This document shows positions 1,930 through 60,852 of a DNA stretch of 64,000 nt, in pieces; position 1 is the stretch's first letter, and each line of letters opens with the position of its first letter. The stretch is from Cristatella mucedo (lineage: Eukaryota > Bryozoa > Phylactolaemata > Cristatellidae): contig WPIO01000122.1 in the NCBI GenBank assembly GCA_009760855.2, positions 152,001 to 216,000 of the forward strand, written 5' to 3'. The notes under the pieces are model-generated. The model had not been told where the DNA came from. It saw only the letters and a list, made by a program, of their open reading frames with translations, and did no database searches. The translations under genes and the position numbers were made by a program.

Positions 1930-3186
1930 CTATGCCTCGACACTCCTATGCTTGGTGCATTCGGAGTATTGACGTGAATGGACAAAGATCCTGTGAGGTA
2001 CCTCTGAAATATCGGGTACATCAGGGCTAAGTGCTAGGTCTGGTTCTTTTCACGGTTTATACTCTCCCACTTGCTGATGTGATTGCCAAGCACAGTCTAG
2101 GCTTTCACCTCTATGCATATGACACTCAGATGTACCTTTGCTTTGATCCCTCCCAGCCTTCGAGCACCTCAAATTCTCTCAACTCACTTGCTGCATGCAT
2201 TGATGACATATGCACATGGATGGCAGCAAATTCTCTAAAACTAAGCGATAATAAAACTAACTGCCTAATTAGGGCAAACCTAGTGTGACTCAGAGGTCGG
2301 AAAGGCTGACTCTCAAAATTGGCTCTGCTGGCATATCACCAGTTGAATCAGCTAGAAACCAAGGTGTCATATTCCAAAGCGACCTCTCGTTAGACGACCA
2401 CATCAGCTCCACAGTAAATCTGCCTATTTTCAGCTTCATAGCATTGCTAAAATTCGGGCTTTTTAGGTAAAGATACCACATCTAAGTTGGTCCATGCATT
2501 CGTGACATCCCGTCTCGACTTCTGCCACTCACTGCTTACTGGCCTACCAGCAGGTGCGATCAGGCGATTGCAGCTGGTGCAAAACTCGGCAGCTAGACTT
2601 GTCTGCCGTGAGCATTGCAGTTGCCTCATTATTCCACTTCTTGCCGACCTGCACTGGCCACCAGTCAAGCAACGGATTGACTTTAAGGTTTTGTCGTTCA
2701 CTTTTTGGTCACTTCATTCTATGGCTCCAACCTATCTCTCAGATATACTCCCCATCAGGCCAAGCATCGTACCAACAGCTTTTCGGAATCCAGCAGTCTA
2801 CAAATACCTCGTACAAACCTCAAATCCTTTGGAGACCGTGCATTAGTTCGTATGCTCCCAAAGCCTGGAACTCAATCCCGACTTGCATCAGAACATCCCC
2901 TGACTTGACCACATTTGAAAAGAACTTAAAAACACACCTATTTAGGACAGCATTTAGTGGGTCCCTGTGATTCGTCCCTCGTGTGTTTATGGGTGCGGAC
3001 ACTCTGTATGCTGCCACTAACTACATTTGCATGCTGACCATGTGCATGTCACCCCTAACCATGTCATTCATTTTGTTTATTAATCAAGCATGATATTACT
3101 CACCATTCAATCGCATTTCCCTACCAGCAAATGTAAAGCGCCTAGAGAGAGATTGAGTTCTCTGAGGGCGATTTATCAAGTGGCAC
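1930..3186 (+). mobile_element. LINE A (CR1/L2-type), RT palm to 3' end, degenerate
   Basis: Plus-strand LINE A starting near the RT motif (Y/G)VPQGSVLGP. The catalytic box reads YAYD instead of YADD near 2112-2123, so the element is dead. The C-terminal RT segment (VHAFVTSRLDFC, LQLVQNSAARLV, LHWPPVKQRIDFKVL) is spread over several frames between about 2490 and 2970. The 3' end carries the family hairpin with AAGCGCC and a damaged GGGCGATTT arm, then TTATCAAGT (about 3137-3180). A second LINE A follows directly. Confidence 0.85.
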
Positions 3187-4150
3187 GATACTTGTTATGG
3201 GCAAACCCAGTGTGATTCAGAGATTGGAAAGGCTGACTTACAAAATTGGCTCTAACAGCATATCTCCAGTTGAATCAGCTCGAAATCTAAGTGACATATT
3301 CCAAAGCGACCTCTCGTTAGACGACCATATCAGCTCCACAGTCAAATCCGCCTATTTTCAGCTTCCTAACATTGCTAAAATTCGGGCTTGTTTAGAGAAA
3401 GATACCACATCTAAGTTGGTCCATGCATTCGTGACATCCCATTTCGACTTCTGCAACTCACTGCCTACTGGTCCACCAGCATGTGCTATCAGGCGATTGC
3501 AGCTGGTGCAAAACTCTGCAGCTAGGCTTGTCTGTCGCGAGCATCGCAGATGCCACATTACTCCACTTCTCGCCGACGTGCACTGGCTACCAGTCAAGCA
3601 ACGGATTGACTTCAAGGTTTTGTCGCTCACTTTTAGGTCCCTTCATTCTATGGCTCCAGCCTATCTTTCATATATACTACTCCATCAGGCCAAGCATCGT
3701 ACCACCCGCTTTTCGGAATCTAACAGTCTAGAAATACCTCGTACAAACCTTAAATCCTTTGGAGACCATGCACTAGTTCGTATGCTCTCACAGCCTGGAA
3801 CTCCCTCCCGACCTGCGTCAGAACATCCTCCGACCTGACCACATTTAAAAGGAACCTAAAAACACACCTATTTAGGAGAGCATCTAGTGGGTTCTCGTGA
3901 TTCGTCCTTGATGTGCTTATGAGTGCTGACACTGTGCATGCTGCCACTAACCACATTTGCATGCTGACCCTGTGCATGTCACCCCTAACCATATTATTCA
4001 TTTTGTTTGTTTTTCAAGCATGATCTTACTTACCATTCAATTGCATTTCACTTTGCAACAAATGTAAAGCGCCTAGAGAGAGATTAAGTTCTCTGAGGGC
4101 GCTTTATCAAGTGTATTATTATTATTATATTATTATTATTATTATTATTA
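3187..4150 (+). mobile_element. LINE A, 5'-truncated, with 213-codon open C-terminal RT segment
   Basis: The element enters just after the RT palm. A frame is open from 3197 to 3838 (213 codons) covering the motifs LERLTYKIGS, SARNLSDIFQSDLSLDDH, VHAFVTSHFDFCNSL, RLQLVQNSAARLVCR and LADVHWLPVKQRIDFKVLSL, which is the RT thumb/C-terminal region of this family. A frameshift near 3680-3840 moves the remaining codons into another frame. The end is the hairpin plus TTATCAAGT and about 30 bp of ATT repeats (to 4150). It lies at the start of the first copy of a direct duplication whose second copy begins near 6.5 kb. Confidence 0.85.
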
Positions 4151-6519: not shown

Positions 6520-7312
6520 CAGCTCCACAGTCAAATCTGCATATTTTCAGCTTCATAACATTGCTAAAATTCGGACATGTTAAGATAAGGATACTACGTC
6601 CATGTTGGTCCATGCATTCGTGACGTACAGTCTCGACTTCTGCAACTCACTGCTCGCTAACCTACCGGCATGTGCGATCAGGCGATTGCAGCTGGAGCAA
6701 AACTCCACAGCTAGGCTTGTCTGTCGTGAGCTTCGCAGTTGCCACATTACTCCACTTCTCGCCGACCTGCACTGGCTACCAGTCAAGCAACGGATCGACT
6801 TCAAGGTTTGTTGCTCACTTTCAGGTCAATTCATTCTATGGCTCCAGCCTATCTCTCAGATATACTCCCCCATCAGGCCAAGGATCGTACCACCTGCTTT
6901 TCGGAATCCAGCAGTGTACAAATATCTCGAACAAACCTCAAATTCTTTGGAGACAGTGCATTTAATTCGTATGCTCCCAAAGCCTGGAACTCCCGACGTG
7001 CGTCAGAACATCCCTTGATTCGACCACATTTAAAAAGAACTTAAAAACACCTATTCAGGAGAGCATATAGTGGGTCCCTGCGATTCGTCCCTCATGTGCT
7101 TATGCGTGCTGACACTGTGCATGCTGCCACTAACCACATTTGCATGCTAACCCTGTACATGTCACCCCTAACCATGTTATTCATTTTGTTTGTTTATCAA
7201 GCAGGATATTACTAACCATTCAACTGCATTTCCCTTTGCAGCAAATGTAAAGCGCCTAGAAAGAGATTGAGTTCTCTGAGGGCGCTTTATCAAGTGCATT
7301 ATTATTATTATT
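6520..7312 (+). mobile_element. LINE A, 5'-truncated, degenerate
   Basis: C-terminal RT region of LINE A in broken frames: VHAFVTYSLDFCNSL near 6605, RLQLEQNSTARLV near 6690, LHWLPVKQRIDFKV near 6770. The 3' hairpin follows (about 7250-7290), then TTATCAAGTGC and ATT repeats. It is the LINE A of the second copy of the 3.2-8.6 kb duplication. Confidence 0.85.
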
Positions 7313-11904: not shown

Positions 11905-12610
11905 TACCATTAAGTTTGTGTGAGCAATCGTCTTGGCTTCTGAAGCTCACTGCTTGCCAGTTTGCCGGCCTGTGCTATCAGGCACTTACAGCTGATGCAA
12001 AACTCTGCAGCTGGGCTTGTCTGTCATGAGCCTCGCAGTTGCCAAATCATACCGCTCCTCGCCAACCTGCATTCGCTACTGGTCAAACAAAGCATCGACT
12101 TCAAGGTTTTCTCACTCTCTTTTAGGTCCCTTCATTCTTTGGCTCAAGCCTACATATCACATCTACTGCCCTACCAGTACATCAGCTTTATGGAATCTAG
12201 CTGCTTACCTAAATGTCGTACAGACCTCCAATTTTTTGGAGACCGTGCCTTAAAATTGCTAGCTCCCACGGATTGGAACCTACTCCCAATTTCCGTCTCT
12301 ACATCCTCTGACTTGACCATATTTATAAGAAACTTAAAACGCATCCATCGATCACAGCACGTAGTGGGTCCCTGATATTCGTACTTAATGTGCTTGTGCC
12401 CACAAGCCCTGTGCATTGAGCCACTAATCATACTTGCATGCTGACCATGTGAATATCACCCCTAACCATGTTTATTCTTGCTGTTTATCAAGCATGCTAC
12501 CACTAACCATTCGATCGCGTTTCCTTTGCAGCAAATGCGAATCGCTTATAAAGAGCCTGAGTTATCTGAGGGCACTTTATCAAATGTTTTATTAATACCA
12601 TTATGATTAT
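11905..12610 (+). mobile_element. LINE A, 5'-truncated, diverged
   Basis: Contains PACAIRHLQLMQNSAAGLVC (11962 onward) and SIDFKVFSLSFRSLHSLA in one 137-codon frame (11962-12375), then the 3' untranslated region and a decayed hairpin (AATCGCTTATAAAGAGCCTGAGTT...GGGCACTT) followed by ATT-like repeats. It is more diverged than the 3.2 kb copy, so it is an older insertion or another subfamily. Confidence 0.8.
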
Positions 12611-12789
12611 TGTTGTTATTATTAGCAGTCACGAGCAGCACGACACGGATCTGAATGATGCCACTCACAAGTTTTGCCACATTTAAAGACGCTTAAATGT
12701 GGATCCGCTGTTCTCGTCCAAATGATATCTAACTGCTAGGCCTGTCAGGTAGATCAAAAATGCTGTGTTTTTACCTGTGGCTGATAAAG

Positions 12790-28454: not shown

Positions 28455-29695
28455 TAGATAGTGAGACTTCGCAGCTCAAAAAGTCTCTTGACAGTGCTTT
28501 ATGGGGTACCTCAGGACTCTGTGCTAGGTCCGGTTCCTTTCACGGCTTATTCTCTCCCTCTTGCTGATGTGATTGCCAAGCACAATCTAGGCTTTCACTT
28601 CTATGCGGATGACACTCAGTTGTACCTTTGCTTTGATCCCTTCCATACTTCGAGCAACTCAAATTCTCTCAACTCACTTGCTGCATGTATTGATGACATC
28701 CACACGTGGATGGCAGCAAATTTCTTTCAATTTAAACGATAACCAAACTAACTTATCAGTCATGGTAAATCGCAGTGTGACTAGGAAATTGGAAGGCTGA
28801 CCCTCAAAATTATTTCTGCCAGCATATTTCCTGTTGAAATCGAAGTGTCAAGTTCAAAAGTGACCTCTCGTTAGACGACCACGTCAGCTGCATGATCAAG
28901 TCTGCCGACTTTCAGATACGTAGGATTGCTAAAATTCAGGCTTGTTTAGATAAGCATACCATGACTAAGTTTGTCCATGCATTTGTGACATCCTGTCTTG
29001 ACTTCTAAAACTCACTTCTTGCTGGCCTACCGGCATGTCCGATCAGGCGATTACAGATGGTGCAAAACTCAACCCCAGCTAGGCTTGTCTGTCGTGAGCG
29101 TCGCAGTTGCCACATCGCACCACTTCTCACCGACTTTCACTGGCTACAAGTCAAGCAACGGATAGACTTCAAGGTTTTGTCGCTCACTTTTAACTCACTT
29201 TATTCTTTGGCTCCAGTCTATCTGTCTTATCTACTCCCCCACAAGGCCAAGCATTTTACCACCCACTTTTCGGAATCCAACGGTTTACCAATACCTCGTA
29301 CAAACCTCAATTTTGTGGAGACCGTTCACTTACTTTGTGGGATACCAAAGCCTGTAACTCACTCCCGACTTGCGTCAGAACATTCATTGACTTGGCCACA
29401 TTAAAAATCACTTAAAAACACACTTATTTGGGACAGCATTTAGTGGGTCCCTGTGATTCATCCTTCATGTACTTATGCATGCTGACACTGCATGTTGCTA
29501 CTAACCACACTTGCTTGCTGACCCTGTGCATGTCACCCCTAACCATGTTATTCATGTCGTTTATTAAGTACGGTATTATTCACCATTCAATCACATTTCC
29601 TTTTGTAGCAAATGTAAAGCGCCTAGAAAGAGATTGCATTCTCTGAGGGCGCTGTATCAAGTGCATTATCAATGATATTATTATATTTATCAAAC
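28455..29695 (+). mobile_element. LINE A with intact YADD palm motif, 5'-truncated
   Basis: Frame 28461-28742 carries YGVPQDSVLGPVPFTAY, LADVIAKHNLGFHFYADDTQ (YADD at 28602-28613) and SLAACIDDIHTWMAAN. A frameshift follows, then the frame 29057-29404 carries QNSTPARLVCRERRSCHIAP and VKQRIDFKVLSLTFNSLYSLAP. The hairpin (about 29618-29660) is followed by TATCAAGTGCATTA and ATT-type repeats. It lacks the endonuclease and N-terminal RT, so it is a dead 5'-truncated copy with fairly good sequence retention. Confidence 0.85.
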
Positions 29696-29739
29696 GTTTT
29701 ATTTATCTTACGTGAAATTTAAATAGTACTTGCTGTATT

Positions 29740-36929: not shown

Positions 36930-37385
36930 AAATGTTGAAGGTGGTTTTGGTGACCCTGTCTAGCAAGGCTCCGACCATAAGAATTTTACTTACTTTTAAT
37001 GCCTTCATTCCTTCTGTCAATATTACCAATAATATCTGCTCCTCCACCAAGCTAAGCATTGTAATATGCTTTTTTCAGAATCTAAATGCTCACTTATACC
37101 TCCTAAAAATCTCAAATCCTTCGGATAATTTTCCTTTGGTTCGTATGCACCCAAAGCCTGGAAATCCTTCACAACTTGCATGACGACATTTCCTGACTTT
37201 TTCGCAGTGAAAATAAACTAAGATGTACCTATGTGTCACAGCATTTATTGGGTCCTTGTGATTTTTCATGTATGTGTTTCTGTGAGCTGACACTGTGCAA
37301 GCTGCCACTAACCATACTAACTTGCTGACTATGTGCATGCCACCTCTTACTATGTTATTCTTGCTCTATAATAAGATGTATTGTT
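36930..37385 (+). mobile_element. LINE A, diverged, shared by both blocks
   Basis: C-terminal RT and 3' untranslated region (CACCCAAAGCCTGGAAATCC, CTGACACTGTGCAAGCTGCC). Its partner at 56600-57115 has the same neighbours, so it predates the duplication. The terminal hairpin is lost here. Confidence 0.7.
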
Positions 37386-37479: not shown

Positions 37480-38915
37480 TAATCTCGCCCCACTTTTTGA
37501 TTTTAACTTTAGGCAAGGTAGAGCAATTGTATCTAAATGTTGCCATGCTGTGTGTCAAGGAGTTGCCTACGGTAGCTGACTTTGACCCTACTGTTTGTAC
37601 TTAGGAAATTTTTGAAACCGCTTTGCGAGGCAGGTATTCTCAATCTGCACTCAGAATTTACCGACAGCCTTGATAACTTTATGAATGCAGTGAACATTAC
37701 AATTGCTTCTCTTGACTTGCATGCTTACCCACATTCTGTCCGTCTACAAAGTCACACGGAAGTGGAGTATCCTTCAGTTTACGAAATCACTTCAAAAGAT
37801 AAGCTTTGTTGAGCGCTGCCTTTTAAGCCATTTGAAGAATTATGGTTCTTATACAAGCCAACGTGGAAGACTTCCTCTCTTGAGTCGGTAAATTGATGCT
37901 TAAAAAAGCCGGTGGATTTTTCCACACGAAAAATTAAGTCCTGCCTGTCAGACCCAAACAGATTTGCAAGAAGGTAAACAAATTGTTAGCCTGTAGTCTG
38001 GCGTTTTACTACCCCCCTTCGGATATCGCCAGAAAAGCCAAACTGTTGTCACCTTTTTTTTCTAAAAAAATGTTTTTTATCGTCCCGCTACAAAGCCTCC
38101 TTTGGCTAAAGCAGCTGAATCGCATTATGTGACCTCTCTTAACAGATTTTCCGAGATCAGTTCATGCGATGTGGCTAGATTAATAAGTTATAGATAAATA
38201 GCTCTCTCTGGAAGACCCTATACCATCATCTCTATGATCATCGCTGGTATACAAACATAGCCCAGCTATAACTGAGATTTTAAATGCTTCTCTAGAAAAA
38301 AGGGTTGTACCCAAGTCCTTCAAATCGCTAATAGCCAGACCGATACTTACAAACACCGGACTAGAAAGAGAGGCTATTGCAACCTTTCACCCAGATTTCT
38401 TTTCCATTTCTGGTCCAAGATTCTTGAAAATATTTTCTCTAATCACTAGCAGCACACTTCGAAAAAATGAAATTTCTGATGAGATTCAAAAGCAATCTTA
38501 GATGCAGTACTTCATTAAAACTACCCTTCTCCGATTTACCAATGCGACCCAGTGCATAGTGATGACTGTAATGTAACTGCTCTAAAGATACTAGATGTTC
38601 CAGCTGCCTTCAAAATCATTGATCACGATATAGTTCTGGAAAGATAGATAACAAGATCATTCTTGCAGTCAAGGCCCAGATGTGGTTTAAGTCGTAGTTG
38701 CCCTATCATTTTGAAATCTGTGTTGGCGAAGGTGTTAGGTCTCACCCACTCACGCAGTCACCTGTATAATCCATTAAGAGTCCGTCGTCGGCTCTTTGCT
38801 ATTCATGATTTATACTCAAACTTCGGATCAAGTGATTTAGAGCTATCACATATGGTACTTCTCACATGCTGACGATATTCAGTTGTATTTATGAAAATAA
38901 TACTAATATTTTTTA
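37480..38915 (+). mobile_element. CR1/L2-type LINE, pre-RT linker through YADD, degenerate, block I only
   Basis: Contains the endonuclease-RT linker (DNFMNAVNITIASLDLHAYP, frame 37582-37812), RT N-terminus (FLFHFWSKILENIFSNH, near 38400), the palm (ILDVPAAFKIIDHDIVLE, near 38590-38645) and a degraded Y-A-D-D-x-QLYL (TCTCACATGCTGACGATATTCAGTTG, near 38860). It stops abruptly there, where a minus-strand LINE A end begins, so the C-terminal half is missing. Many stops. Confidence 0.75.
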
Positions 38916-39115
38916 CATTTTATACAGTACCCTCAGAAAAATTGATCTTTTTCTATGCGCTCTAAATTTGCTGAACGAGAAGCACGATCGATAATTTAGT
39001 GTTATCATTCTGGATAAACGACAAGAATAACAGGATTAAGGTGAAGTAAAACGGGTTAGCATGCAAATGTGGTCAGTGGCAGCATGCATAGTGTCAATAT
39101 GCTTTAGCACGTAAT
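38905..39115 (-). mobile_element. LINE A 3' end, minus orientation
   Basis: Complemented hairpin (CAGTACCCTCAGAAAAATTGATC...ATGCGCTCTA) and 3' untranslated region with TTAGCATGCAAATGTGGTCAGTGGC. Confidence 0.75.
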
Positions 39116-39116
39116 A

Positions 39117-39185
39117 ACAATCATAATAACAATAACACGCTTGATAAAACGCCCTCAGATGACTCAGTCTTTTTGTAGAGATTAT
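39117..39185 (-). mobile_element. LINE A 3' hairpin only, minus orientation
   Basis: ATAACAATAACACGCTTGATAAAACGCCCTCAGATGACTCAGTC: the ATT tail and hairpin of a very short copy. Confidence 0.65.
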
Positions 39186-39339
39186 TTCAATCGCACTCAC
39201 TAAATGCTGTGATTATAGGATGCATTTTTAGTTTATATTTACTTGTGGTTAAGTCACGAGATTTTTCGCTACAATTCAGAAGTGAGTTTTGGGCTTTGGA
39301 CTTAAACGAAATAAAGGCTAGGTCTTTTATGTATTAGTG

Positions 39340-39531
39340 CAGCGGTTCTTAACCAGTGGGTCGTGACCCGTTTTGGGGGCGGGTCAAATGACCCACTTAC
39401 AGGGATCCCCCAAGACGTTTGGAAAGCATGCATTTCTACACTTCGCACGTACTAGTTTTACGGTCAGAAGTCGCCACAACACAAGCATTTTTGTTATAGG
39501 GTCGCAGCATTAGAAAGATTGAGAGCCGCTG
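39340..39531 (+). mobile_element. SPIN-like non-autonomous hAT element (MITE)
   Basis: 192 bp with terminal inverted repeats CAGCGGTTCTTAACC (39340-39354) and GATTGAGAGCCGCTG (39517-39531), 12 of 15 positions matching. Next to the left end is the subterminal palindrome GTGGGTCGTGACCC and then GGGCGGGTCAAATGACCC. Before the right end comes TAGGGTCGCAGCATTAGAAAG. These ends are strikingly like the SPIN family of hAT transposons known from several vertebrates. No transposase is encoded, so it would have depended on a full-length hAT in trans. The expected 8-bp target duplication is not visible. It lies in a block I-only region. Confidence 0.7.
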
Positions 39532-39664
39532 GATGAAAAGAATGTGAGTGGTGTAGGTAAACGTTAGAATTGCTAAAACGCTCCGGCTACGATGCTGAGC
39601 CTGGTGGGAAGGAGAGCTTATAGGTAAGGTGGAGCTAAAGAATAATATAACCTAAAATTAAGTG

Positions 39665-40470
39665 AATCAACATTAATATTAGAACAATTATAATACTCAA
39701 ATGACACTTTAGAGAACTCTGTCTTTTTCTAAGCAATATACATTTGCTGCAAAGGAAGCACCATCAAACGGTTAGCGGTAGCATGCTCGTTAAATAACAG
39801 GAATAACATGGTTAGGGGTGACATGAAGTTGGTCAGCATGTAAGTACGGTTAGTAGCAGCAGGCATAGAGTCAGCACCCATAAGCAAGTAAAGGACTAAT
39901 CAGAGGGACCCACTAATCACGGTGATAAATACATACGTTATTAGTTTGAGGTCGAGTCAGGAGATGTCGTGACGCAAATCGACAGTCTGTTACATGCATT
40001 GGGTGCACGGTCTCCAAAGGCACGGTCTCTAAAGAACTTGAAGTTTATACGAGGTATAAATAAAGAGATAGATTCTGAAAAACCTGTGCTTACGATACCT
40101 AGCATGGTGGGGTAGACCTACCGTGGTGGAGGAGTAGATCGGATAGGTCAGCTGGAGCCCAAAACTGAAAGGACCTGAAACGGAGAAACACAACTTGGAA
40201 GTGGTTTTGGTGCTTCGTTGGAAGCCCGGAAAAGTTGGCTAGAAGTGGGGGAGATGTGGAAACTGCAAAGCTCACAATAGACAAGCCAAGTCGCAGAGTT
40301 TGCTCCAGCTTTAAGTATCCGATTTCGCAGTCTTGTAGACCGTTGACTGACAAAAGTAAAGATAGCTCCGAAACGCCTTAAGCAATTTAGACGTAGTATC
40401 CCTGTCTAAACTAGCCTGAATTTTAGCAACGCTATGTAGCTGAAAGTAGGCAAACTTGACTCAGGGCCCA
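39665..40470 (-). mobile_element. LINE A, minus orientation, degenerate
   Basis: ATT-like tail (39665-39700), damaged hairpin, 3' untranslated region with AACATGGTTAGGGGTGACATG, then the C-terminal RT frame 40099-40353 (LEQTLRLGLSIVSFAVSTSPPL region). The SARNLG-type block is absent. Confidence 0.75.
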
Positions 40471-43299: not shown

Positions 43300-43605
43300 T
43301 CATAGCATATGACGGACCTTCAAGACATCCGATTACTGACAAACTCAACACACCATTTATCGCAACCTATAGTGGGTACCTGTAATTTGACCTTCGTGTG
43401 CTTATGCATGCTGACTCTGTGCATGCTGCCACTAACCATACTTGCATGCTGACCTCGTGCCTATAACCAGTGACCACGTTGGGTATTGAGCATGCTACCA
43501 CTAACCGTTTGATTGTGCGTCCTTTGTAGCGAATGTAAAACACCTAAACAAAGTTTTATTTCTCTGAGGGTGCTTTATCAAATGCATTATTACGCTTATT
43601 ATGAT
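43300..43605 (+). mobile_element. LINE A 3' end, shared by both blocks
   Basis: GGCACAATGTCATAG to ATTATTACG with CATGCTGCCACTAACCATAC and a decayed hairpin (AAACACCTAAACAAAG...GGGTGCTTTA). The partner in block II is 59560-59825. Confidence 0.75.
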
Positions 43606-43924
43606 CGTTATATTGGTAATGTGGCTAGTTTTTGAGTAGCCTGGTTACTTTTCATATCGCTAGATGAAGGGGCAGTTCCAATAGGCTTAATACACATTCT
43701 ATGGGCCAGCCTTAAATATTTAAGGTACGAAATGCACGTATTATGGGCATGCTAGTTACGTAAAGATATATCACTTCATATTTAAGATGAAGCAATATTA
43801 ATTCTAAACAAAAATCCGCTGTAGTACTTATGGACGCTTTTCTACTATAACTAGACTTCCAAAAATATATGAGCCGAAAAAATGTATACCCTGAAGTTGG
43901 TTTGATGTTGTTAATTGGAATAGT

Positions 43925-45545
43925 AATAATAATAGTAGCAATCGTGCACTTGTTAAAGGGCCCGAGGAAAACTCAACATCTTTTTAGGCACTTTAAATTT
44001 GCTGCAATGGGAGTCGCGATTGAATGAAGAGTAATATAATTCCTGATAAACAACATGCATAACATGGTTAGGGGTCACATGCAAACGGTCAGCTTGTCCG
44101 TCTAAATACTGTCTTAAATCGCTGTGTTTTTATGTTCGTTTTAGATGTGGTCAAGTCAGGGGAGGTTCTAACACAAGTCGGGAAGAAGTTCCAGGCTTTT
44201 GTAGCATACGAACTAAATGCACGGTCTATTAAGGATTTGGGGTTTGTACGAGGTATAAAAACTTTGGATGCTGAAAAGCAGGTGGTATGATGCTTGGCCT
44301 GATGGGAGAGTAGATCTGTATGATAGGCTGGAGCCAAATAATGAAGTGACCTAAAAGTGAGCGACAAAACCTTGAAGTCAATCCCTTGCTTGACTGGTAG
44401 CCAGGGCAGGTTAGCGAGAAGTGGTGTGATGCTGCAACTCCGATGCTCATGACCAACCAGCCTAGCTACAGAGTTTTGCATCAGCAGTAAGGGCCTGATT
44501 GTACATGCCGGTAGGCCAGTAGCAGTGAGTTACAGAAGTCATAAAAGGATGTCACAAATGAATGGATTAACTGAGACTCGGTATCCTTATCTGAAAAAGG
44601 CCGAATTTTAGCAACGTTATTTATCTGAAAGTTGACAGACTTGATTGTGGAGCGGACGTGGTCGTCTAACGAGAGGCCTCTTTGGAAAAGACAACTAGAT
44701 TTCGAGCTGATTCAACTGAAGATATGCTGGCATACTCAAACTTGAGCGTAACTTTTCCAATTTCTGAATCACACTGGGTTTCTCATTACCAATAAATTAG
44801 TTTCATCGTCTCATTTAAGAAAACATTTGCTGCCGTTCATTTGAGGACGTCATCAATACATGCAGCAAGTGAGTTGAGAGAATTTGAGATGCTTTAAGGC
44901 TACGAGTGATCAAAGAAAAGGTATACATGAGTCTCATCTGGGTTGAAGTGAAAGCCTAGATTGTGCTTGGCAATCACGTCAGCAAAAGGGCCAGAATAAA
45001 CCAAGAAAAGAACCGGCCCTAGCACGGAGCCCTGAGGTACCCCATATTTGAGAGTTAACTCGGATGATCTTTGTTCATTCGCGTCAATTCTCTGGATTCT
45101 TCCTCTGAGAACCTGAACTGTTTCAGAGCAGTGCCTGTGATGCCCAGGCAAGACGTGAGGCGCTGTAGAAGAATTTGGTGATCAATAATATCAAATGCTG
45201 CCAAAAGATTGACCTAAAAATTCAGAGATTATCTACCCATGTATGCATTCCTTAGTAGGTCATTATAAACCCTATGCAATGCCTATAAGGTGGAGTGATT
45301 AGCTCTAAAGCCAGACTGGTACATTCTAGCAATGTTTGAAGTTTCAATATGTGAGTTCAGCTGGTAGGCCACGATCCGTTCCGATGTTTTTGATAGTTAT
45401 TTTAGAAGTGAGACTAGGTGGTAGCTGCTTAAGTTATCTCGGTCTATTGTAGCTTTCTTGAGCAGTAGCCTGACTACAGCTTCTTTGAAAGGTGCTGGGC
45501 ATGACCTGAGGCTAATGGCATATCAATTATGTTTGTTATGCATAG
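43925..45545 (-). mobile_element. LINE A, RT nearly complete, minus orientation, block I only
   Basis: On the minus strand, from the right: AVVRLLLKKATIDRDNLSSY (about 45475), YQSGFRANHS (about 45310), LLAAFDIIDHQILLQRL (about 45225-45170), then 45151-44900 open with VLRGRIQR and LKYGVPQGSVLGPVLFLVYS, and FHFNPDETHVYLF where YADD should be (dead palm). The C-terminal frame 44481-44089 is open for 130 codons with QNSVARLVGHEH, LPWLPVKQGIDFKVLSLTF. The tail is the complemented hairpin and an ATT-type repeat at about 43925-43995. It is one of the longest RT copies here, and block II lacks it. Confidence 0.85.
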
Positions 45546-56599: not shown

Positions 56600-57115
56600 A
56601 CCAACGGCCGAGGCTGCTGTGCTAATTACAATAGCAGACCCAGACAGCATCCCCTTTAACTATTCCCCACTAGCCTACCTATCAGATCTCCCCTACCAAG
56701 CTAAGCATCATACCATCTGCTTTTCAGAACCTGAATGTTCACCTATACCTCCCACAAGCCCAAAATCCTTTGGAGACCGTGCCTGTAGTTCTTATGCTCC
56801 CAAAGAAGGGAACTCACTCCCCACCTCAGACACGAAATCCGCTGACTTGACTACATTAAAAGAAATTAAAAACGCACCTATTTCTTGCAGCACTAAGTGA
56901 GTTCCCGTGATTTTTCTTTTATGTGCTTATTTTTACGGACACAGTGCATGATGCTACTAACCACACTTGCCTGCTTACCCTGTGCATTTCACCCTAACCA
57001 CGCTATTTTTGTTGCTTATCGAACATGCTACCACTAAAGATGATTCCTTTGCAGCTATTGTAAAGTGCTAAGAGATGGAACTCTCTAGATTAAATATAGC
57101 ATTGTTATTTTTAAT
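56600..57115 (+). mobile_element. LINE A, diverged, shared by both blocks
   Basis: C-terminal RT (frame to 56900 with LSDLPYQAKHHTICFSEPE and SFGDRACSSYAPKEGNSLP) and 3' untranslated region. The terminal hairpin is decayed (GTAAAGTGCTAAGAGATGGAAC). Same neighbours as 36930-37385. Confidence 0.75.

Positions 57116-60738: not shown

Positions 60739-60852
<114 letters not shown>

What the first reader, a model, noticed from the sequence alone, without database searches (positions are those of the whole stretch)
39340..39531. SPIN-like hAT MITE: candidate horizontal transfer
Terminal repeats CAGCGGTTCTTAACC / GATTGAGAGCCGCTG, a subterminal GTGGGTCGTGACCC palindrome and a GGGTCGCAGCATTAG block near the other end closely resemble vertebrate SPIN-type hAT elements as I remember them. 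SPIN is an established case of horizontal transfer among animals. An invertebrate-looking genome carrying such ends is worth dating.
Basis: partly seen in the sequence, partly recalled or inferred. Interest (0 to 1): 0.75.

Follow-up and report, generated by a model that had tools for sequence, protein, structure and literature searches.

The report
SPIN transposon relic in an invertebrate
A 192-base fragment of a cut-and-paste jumping gene in this invertebrate genome appears to belong to a family known from mammals and reptiles, which points to DNA having crossed between distant animal groups, as already reported for a few bugs and snails.

Summary
At 39340-39531 lies a decayed 192-bp non-autonomous hAT element. 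It sits inside an older LINE copy; compared with seven empty LINE copies in the window, 200 bp (192 + an 8-bp target duplication) are extra.

The own genome (572 Mb; mitochondrial code read as invertebrate) holds about 1,800 related copies by estimate: 1,313 right ends within 3 mismatches, 0 in the control. A longer 482-bp copy, L090, matches a SPIN right arm at 126 of 132, including interior sequence absent from the window. Similarity therefore runs far beyond the termini. Target duplications prefer nTCTAGAn.

The 56 aligned copies lie 4-16% from their consensus, suggesting one old burst; the window copy is an outlier (23%). No autonomous SPIN transposase was found and no vertebrate SPIN record was available, so the family name and horizontal transfer rest partly on recall. 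SPIN in invertebrates is already in print. I judge this a new member of a known kind: a strong horizontal-transfer candidate, donor and direction unknown.

The parts
39340..39531 (+). Non-autonomous SPIN-type hAT element (MITE), 192 bp, 23% diverged from the genome family consensus
39340..39354 (+). Left terminal inverted repeat CAGCGGTTCTTAACC
39517..39531 (-). Right terminal inverted repeat (CAGCGGCTCTCAATC on the minus strand; 12 of 15 match the left)
39356..39369 (.). Subterminal GTGGGTCGTGACCC, decayed from the consensus palindrome GGGTCGCGACCC
39499..39513 (+). Right subterminal block GGGTCGCAGCATTAG
39332..39339 (.). Left 8-bp target-site copy TATTAGTG (decayed)
39532..39539 (.). Right 8-bp target-site copy GATGAAAA (decayed; 3 of 8 match the left; the empty-LINE consensus reads GATTTGAG here)
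38896..40300 (-). Old LINE copy that received the insertion (the right limit is the end of the query, not of the LINE)

Best explanation
39340-39531 is an internally deleted, non-autonomous SPIN element (hAT superfamily, Buster type; both names recalled). A SPIN transposase supplied in trans would have bound the matching ends and subterminal palindromes, cut the element out and pasted it into a LINE copy, duplicating 8 bp of an nnnTAnnn-like target. SPIN entered this invertebrate lineage by horizontal transfer, and several deleted forms (sizes about 187, 320, 480, 610 and 920 bp) then amplified to an estimated 1,800 copies; the 56 aligned copies are decayed. Shown: boundaries, target duplication, right-end counts, consensus, mitochondrial code. 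Inferred: the transposase and trans-mobilisation, and transfer as the reason for the identity with vertebrate SPIN, which was recalled, not looked up.
For: The empty-site test gives 192 + 8 bp. 24 of 40 copies (the window's included) have target duplications matching at 6 or more of 8; mean 5.68 against 3.51 for shuffled pairs (maximum 4.1); consensus nTCTAGAn with T at position 4 in 63 of 80 and A at position 5 in 70 of 80. Consensus of 39 copies against recalled SPIN: 178 of 187; of 17 copies: 179 of 187, but those 17 were picked by an exact 29-nt right end. L090 right arm: 126 of 132, score 224 against at most 23 in 300 shuffles; 29 of the 132 were fixed by the same selection, leaving 97 of 103 free positions. 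The recalled letters were typed, before L090 was fetched. Right ends: 924 within 2 and 1,313 within 3 mismatches, control 0. Longer forms: all 10 loci fetched of 40 scored have the SPIN left end (one of them, L104, is L090 again). Mitochondrial code.
Against: No vertebrate SPIN record could be compared: 0 matches in viral contigs, genome contigs, plasmids and phages, collections of viruses and prokaryotes where none need be expected; the founding papers are not held; six SPIN snippets occur in 0 papers. No SPIN-type transposase was found. The window copy itself is only 144 of 187 identical to recalled SPIN, and its own target duplications match at only 3 of 8.
Confidence: 0.85

Rival explanations
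1. A SPIN-related hAT lineage inherited vertically from early animals, resembling vertebrate SPIN only because transposase-binding ends are conserved.
For: Many animal hAT families share CAGnGGTTCT-type ends (recalled).
Against: Similarity covers 178 of 187 aligned positions and 97 of 103 unselected positions of a longer arm including interior sequence, while individual copies have themselves drifted 4-16% from their consensus. Non-coding DNA would not be expected to stay this similar since the split of protostomes and vertebrates.
Confidence: 0.06
2. The copies are vertebrate contamination in the assembly.
For: The consensus is nearly that of a vertebrate repeat.
Against: The window copy is nested in a LINE that has at least seven other copies in the same 64 kb. 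The 40 scored matches lie on 32 contigs, each over 1 Mb, and the genome bears a mitochondrial contig that reads in the invertebrate code.
Confidence: 0.02
3. A different, unnamed hAT family of this host whose ends happen to resemble SPIN; the SPIN label is a misattribution of a recalled sequence.
For: The SPIN sequence and its name were recalled, and no library confirmed them.
Against: The recalled sequence contained an interior stretch that was then found in L090 (126 of 132 over the arm), so it is a real sequence that exists outside the window. A published mollusc genome reports about 1,000 copies of a hAT with identity to SPIN (PMC5440852, passage).
Confidence: 0.07

Closest known systems
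SPIN (Space Invaders) hAT transposons and their SPIN_NA deletion derivatives in vertebrates
   Same: Ends, subterminal palindrome, right block and right-arm interior (178 of 187; 126 of 132, against the recalled sequence); 8-bp duplications; many short non-autonomous copies
   Different: Invertebrate host; the 187-bp form has its own central deletion; no autonomous copy found here
hAT family with identity to SPIN in the snail Biomphalaria glabrata (PMC5440852, passage read)
   Same: About 1,000 copies; DNA transposons described as not recent there, with no intact transposase detected
   Different: Different genome; sequences could not be compared here
SPIN elements of Rhodnius prolixus (PMC11614815, passages read) and hAT transfers among chordates, arthropods, molluscs (Lymnaea stagnalis named) and flatworms (PMC4344730, passages read; its reference 26, which I take to be Gilbert et al. 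2010)
   Same: hAT transposons shared between vertebrates and invertebrates, SPIN among them in Rhodnius
   Different: In Rhodnius the passages call the transfer recent and report fewer than 5 SPIN copies within piRNA clusters (genome-wide number not seen); here the estimate is 1,800 copies, 4-16% diverged
The host's own young hAT family (L054-L083; Hermes-like transposase)
   Same: hAT superfamily, same genome
   Different: No SPIN consensus match in 30 of 30 loci; these loci include the shared right boundary but not the left end. Main aligned pieces 98.9-99.8% identical

Membership tests
hAT superfamily | 8-bp target-site duplication | tested here: met
   200-bp excess = 192 + 8 at the window site; 24 of 40 copies match at 6 or more of 8
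hAT superfamily | Short terminal inverted repeats beginning CAG | tested here: met
   CAGCGG at both ends, 12 of 15 match
Buster-type hAT (definition recalled) | Target preference nnnTAnnn | tested here: met
   nTCTAGAn consensus; T4 63 of 80, A5 70 of 80
SPIN | Sequence identity with SPIN over the whole element, beyond the termini | tested here: met
   178 of 187 and 126 of 132, of which 29 fixed by selection, against a consensus recalled from memory, not a library entry
SPIN | Autonomous partner encoding a SPIN transposase with the same ends | tested here: inconclusive
SPIN | Dfam/Repbase assignment | not testable with these tools
   No repeat library on hand
Horizontal transfer | Element divergence between hosts far below that of host genes | tested here: inconclusive
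   Element consensus nearly identical to recalled vertebrate SPIN; no vertebrate genome was available to measure gene divergence

The most novel reading that the evidence does not exclude
The window copy (23-25% from consensus, K2P 0.28-0.31) is a survivor of a SPIN presence in this invertebrate lineage about three times older than the main burst (8-10%), so that invertebrates of this kind could have been a long-standing reservoir of SPIN rather than late recipients from vertebrates.
Probability: 0.15. Interest if true: 0.75.

Novelty: new member of a known kind. Interest (0 to 1): 0.5.

Why it matters
It adds an invertebrate genome with an estimated 1,800 SPIN-type copies to the few invertebrate cases I saw in print (a blood-feeding bug, freshwater snails, and hAT transfers involving flatworms). 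A host with abundant, dateable, multi-form SPIN makes the direction and timing of transfer across animal phyla testable, by checking presence or absence in close relatives.

Tried and rejected
Rejected: similarity only in the terminal repeats. Not supported: the abundant 640-aa hAT transposase as the autonomous partner (no SPIN consensus match in 30 of 30 loci; the loci hold its right end, about base 2181 of L073, but not its left end). Not supported: an abundant older subfamily sharing the window copy's right-end changes; 10 other copies lie within 2 mismatches against 10.5 (sd 3.3) expected from one star-like burst, so the copy's right-end changes look private. That simulation used 0.23 for the share of A at the variable site, counted by eye in the listing; my recount gives 22.

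Led nowhere: patterns in viral contigs and genome contigs, blastn in plasmids and phages, and sequence snippets in papers, each 0 matches. Rfam on the window: 0 matches at gathering score. Pfam on 10 of the 32 listed window ORFs: only a reverse transcriptase above its cut-off. A first pairwise empty-site script used unsuitable gap penalties and gave scattered gaps or none; it was replaced. One search printed no reading because it used one strand only; one search replaced it.

Sampling biases: the 39 copies were those scored most like the window copy, and the 17 copies (and L090) all have an exact 29-nt right end; both favour less-diverged copies, and the second fixes 29 positions of each comparison. 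The LINE divergences are from a consensus made of the seven empty copies, which lowers those seven.

Full report
Observation. Its ends match as inverted repeats at 12 of 15. It is the only clear copy in the window: the genome consensus hits this place with E 4e-33 and the next with E 0.03.

Boundaries and insertion. The element sits in a LINE copy that runs on the minus strand from about 38896 past 40000. Seven other LINE copies in the window that I aligned cover the same stretch and lack the element; joined flanks show 8 extra bases against all seven. In a scan of removal lengths 180-215 against the consensus of the seven, 200 bp fits best (score 184; the next lengths 180), with 39340-39539 one of three tied placements. 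So the insertion brought 192 bp plus an 8-bp target duplication, now decayed to TATTAGTG/GATGAAAA. The LINE copy is 36.7% from the LINE consensus (the seven others, of which that consensus is made, 4.5-33.3%) and the element 23.0% from its own, which fits the nested order.

The family in the genome. The own genome (572,011,866 bases, 688 contigs) returned 307 candidates, 40 scored, one being the window copy; the 39 others are 73-78% identical to it. Aligned, those 39 give a 187-bp consensus from which they differ by K2P 0.084 on average (0.044-0.136); the window copy differs by 0.285. Of 19 loci taken from 100 listed exact right-end matches, 17 are the 187-bp form, one is a 482-bp form (L090) and one (L103) is a copy split by about 3.6 kb. 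The 17 lie at K2P 0.102 on average (0.040-0.161), measured outside the right-end anchor; the window copy at 0.311. The right end occurs 924 times within 2 and 1,313 times within 3 mismatches; the pattern read backwards occurs 0 times. A Poisson fit gives about 9% divergence per site and about 1,780 copies, assuming one homogeneous burst. A search with the 130-nt right arm of L090 gave 1,864 candidates, 40 scored, the 39 others at 87-93%. The 10 loci returned, one of which is L090's own place, all have the SPIN left end, at total lengths of about 320-920 bp. Target duplications prefer nTCTAGAn.

What it matches. The window copy matches it at 144 of 187 aligned positions (score 132; best of 300 shuffles -20). 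The consensus of the 39 copies matches at 178 of 187, with the 37 gap columns in the centre; that of the 17 copies at 179 of 187. L090 then showed the right-arm interior that the recalled sequence has and the window lacks: 126 of 132, of which 29 positions were fixed by how L090 was picked, leaving 97 of 103. This validates the recalled letters as a real, shared sequence; that they are SPIN of vertebrates remains recall, since no repeat library or vertebrate record could be searched.

Host. The 21,008-bp contig C688 holds cox1 with TGA as Trp; AGR at serine, ATA at methionine and AAA at lysine positions fit code 5, judged by eye against remembered cox1 conservation. The vertebrate code breaks the frame, and the residues speak against the tunicate and flatworm/echinoderm codes. 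Gene order nad1-nad6-cob-nad4-nad5 on one strand and cox3 followed by tRNA-Lys, Ala, Asn suggest a lophotrochozoan, perhaps a mollusc; genes were named by eye and the orders compared from recall. The mollusc marker PF14830 could not be tested.

Mechanism. Matching ends, subterminal palindromes, fixed-length target duplications, several sizes with the same ends and no room for a transposase in this 192-bp copy fit trans-mobilisation by a hAT transposase. No partner was identified: the young, nearly identical hAT family in this genome shows no SPIN end in 30 of 30 loci, though its left end lies outside them.

The outlier. At 43 of 187 differences the window copy is far outside a 9% burst (binomial 1.6e-8 at 0.092; 3.5e-5 even at 0.123). 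Its right-end changes are not shared beyond chance: 10 other copies within 2 mismatches, 10.5 expected. It is either an older insertion or a copy that changed fast; I cannot separate these, because my sampling favours less-diverged copies.

Literature, all seen as passages only: Rhodnius SPIN (PMC11614815); about 1,000 copies of a hAT with identity to SPIN in Biomphalaria glabrata (PMC5440852); hAT transfer among chordates, arthropods, molluscs and flatworms, Lymnaea stagnalis named (PMC4344730); 385 SPIN elements in the painted turtle (PMC4054807); DNA-transposon transfers over about 45-15 My (PMC3621081). The original SPIN papers are not held. SPIN in invertebrates is thus known; how new this host is depends on its identity, which I could not establish.

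Noticed in passing
L054-L083 (G000, many contigs): A very young hAT family: dozens of places with equal PF05699 scores and open frames of 640 aa in many; the 29 other fetched loci align to L073, main pieces 98.9-99.8% identical; Hermes-like transposase. It looks recently active; no SPIN end was seen in it.
   Followed up: partly
window 2583-4138, 6711-7312, 12001-12614, 29079-29703, 37044-37371, 43370-44475, 56684-57073: Many fragments of the LINE family that received the insertion, 4.5-37% from its consensus in the eight compared copies; seven of them serve as built-in empty sites.
   Followed up: yes
L052-L053, L084 (G000:C688): Mitochondrial contig of 21,008 bp in which reading frames recur at a spacing of 2,115 bp; either real repeats or an assembly effect.
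   Followed up: no
L049-L051 (G000:C166, C83, C549), also C299: Partial cox1 matches on other contigs, probably nuclear copies of mitochondrial DNA.
   Followed up: no
L103 (G000:C61:669621-673949): A SPIN-type element split by about 3.6 kb near its base 138, apparently by a later insertion.
   Followed up: no
window 60740-60849: (TA)38 followed by (AG)17 microsatellites.
   Followed up: no
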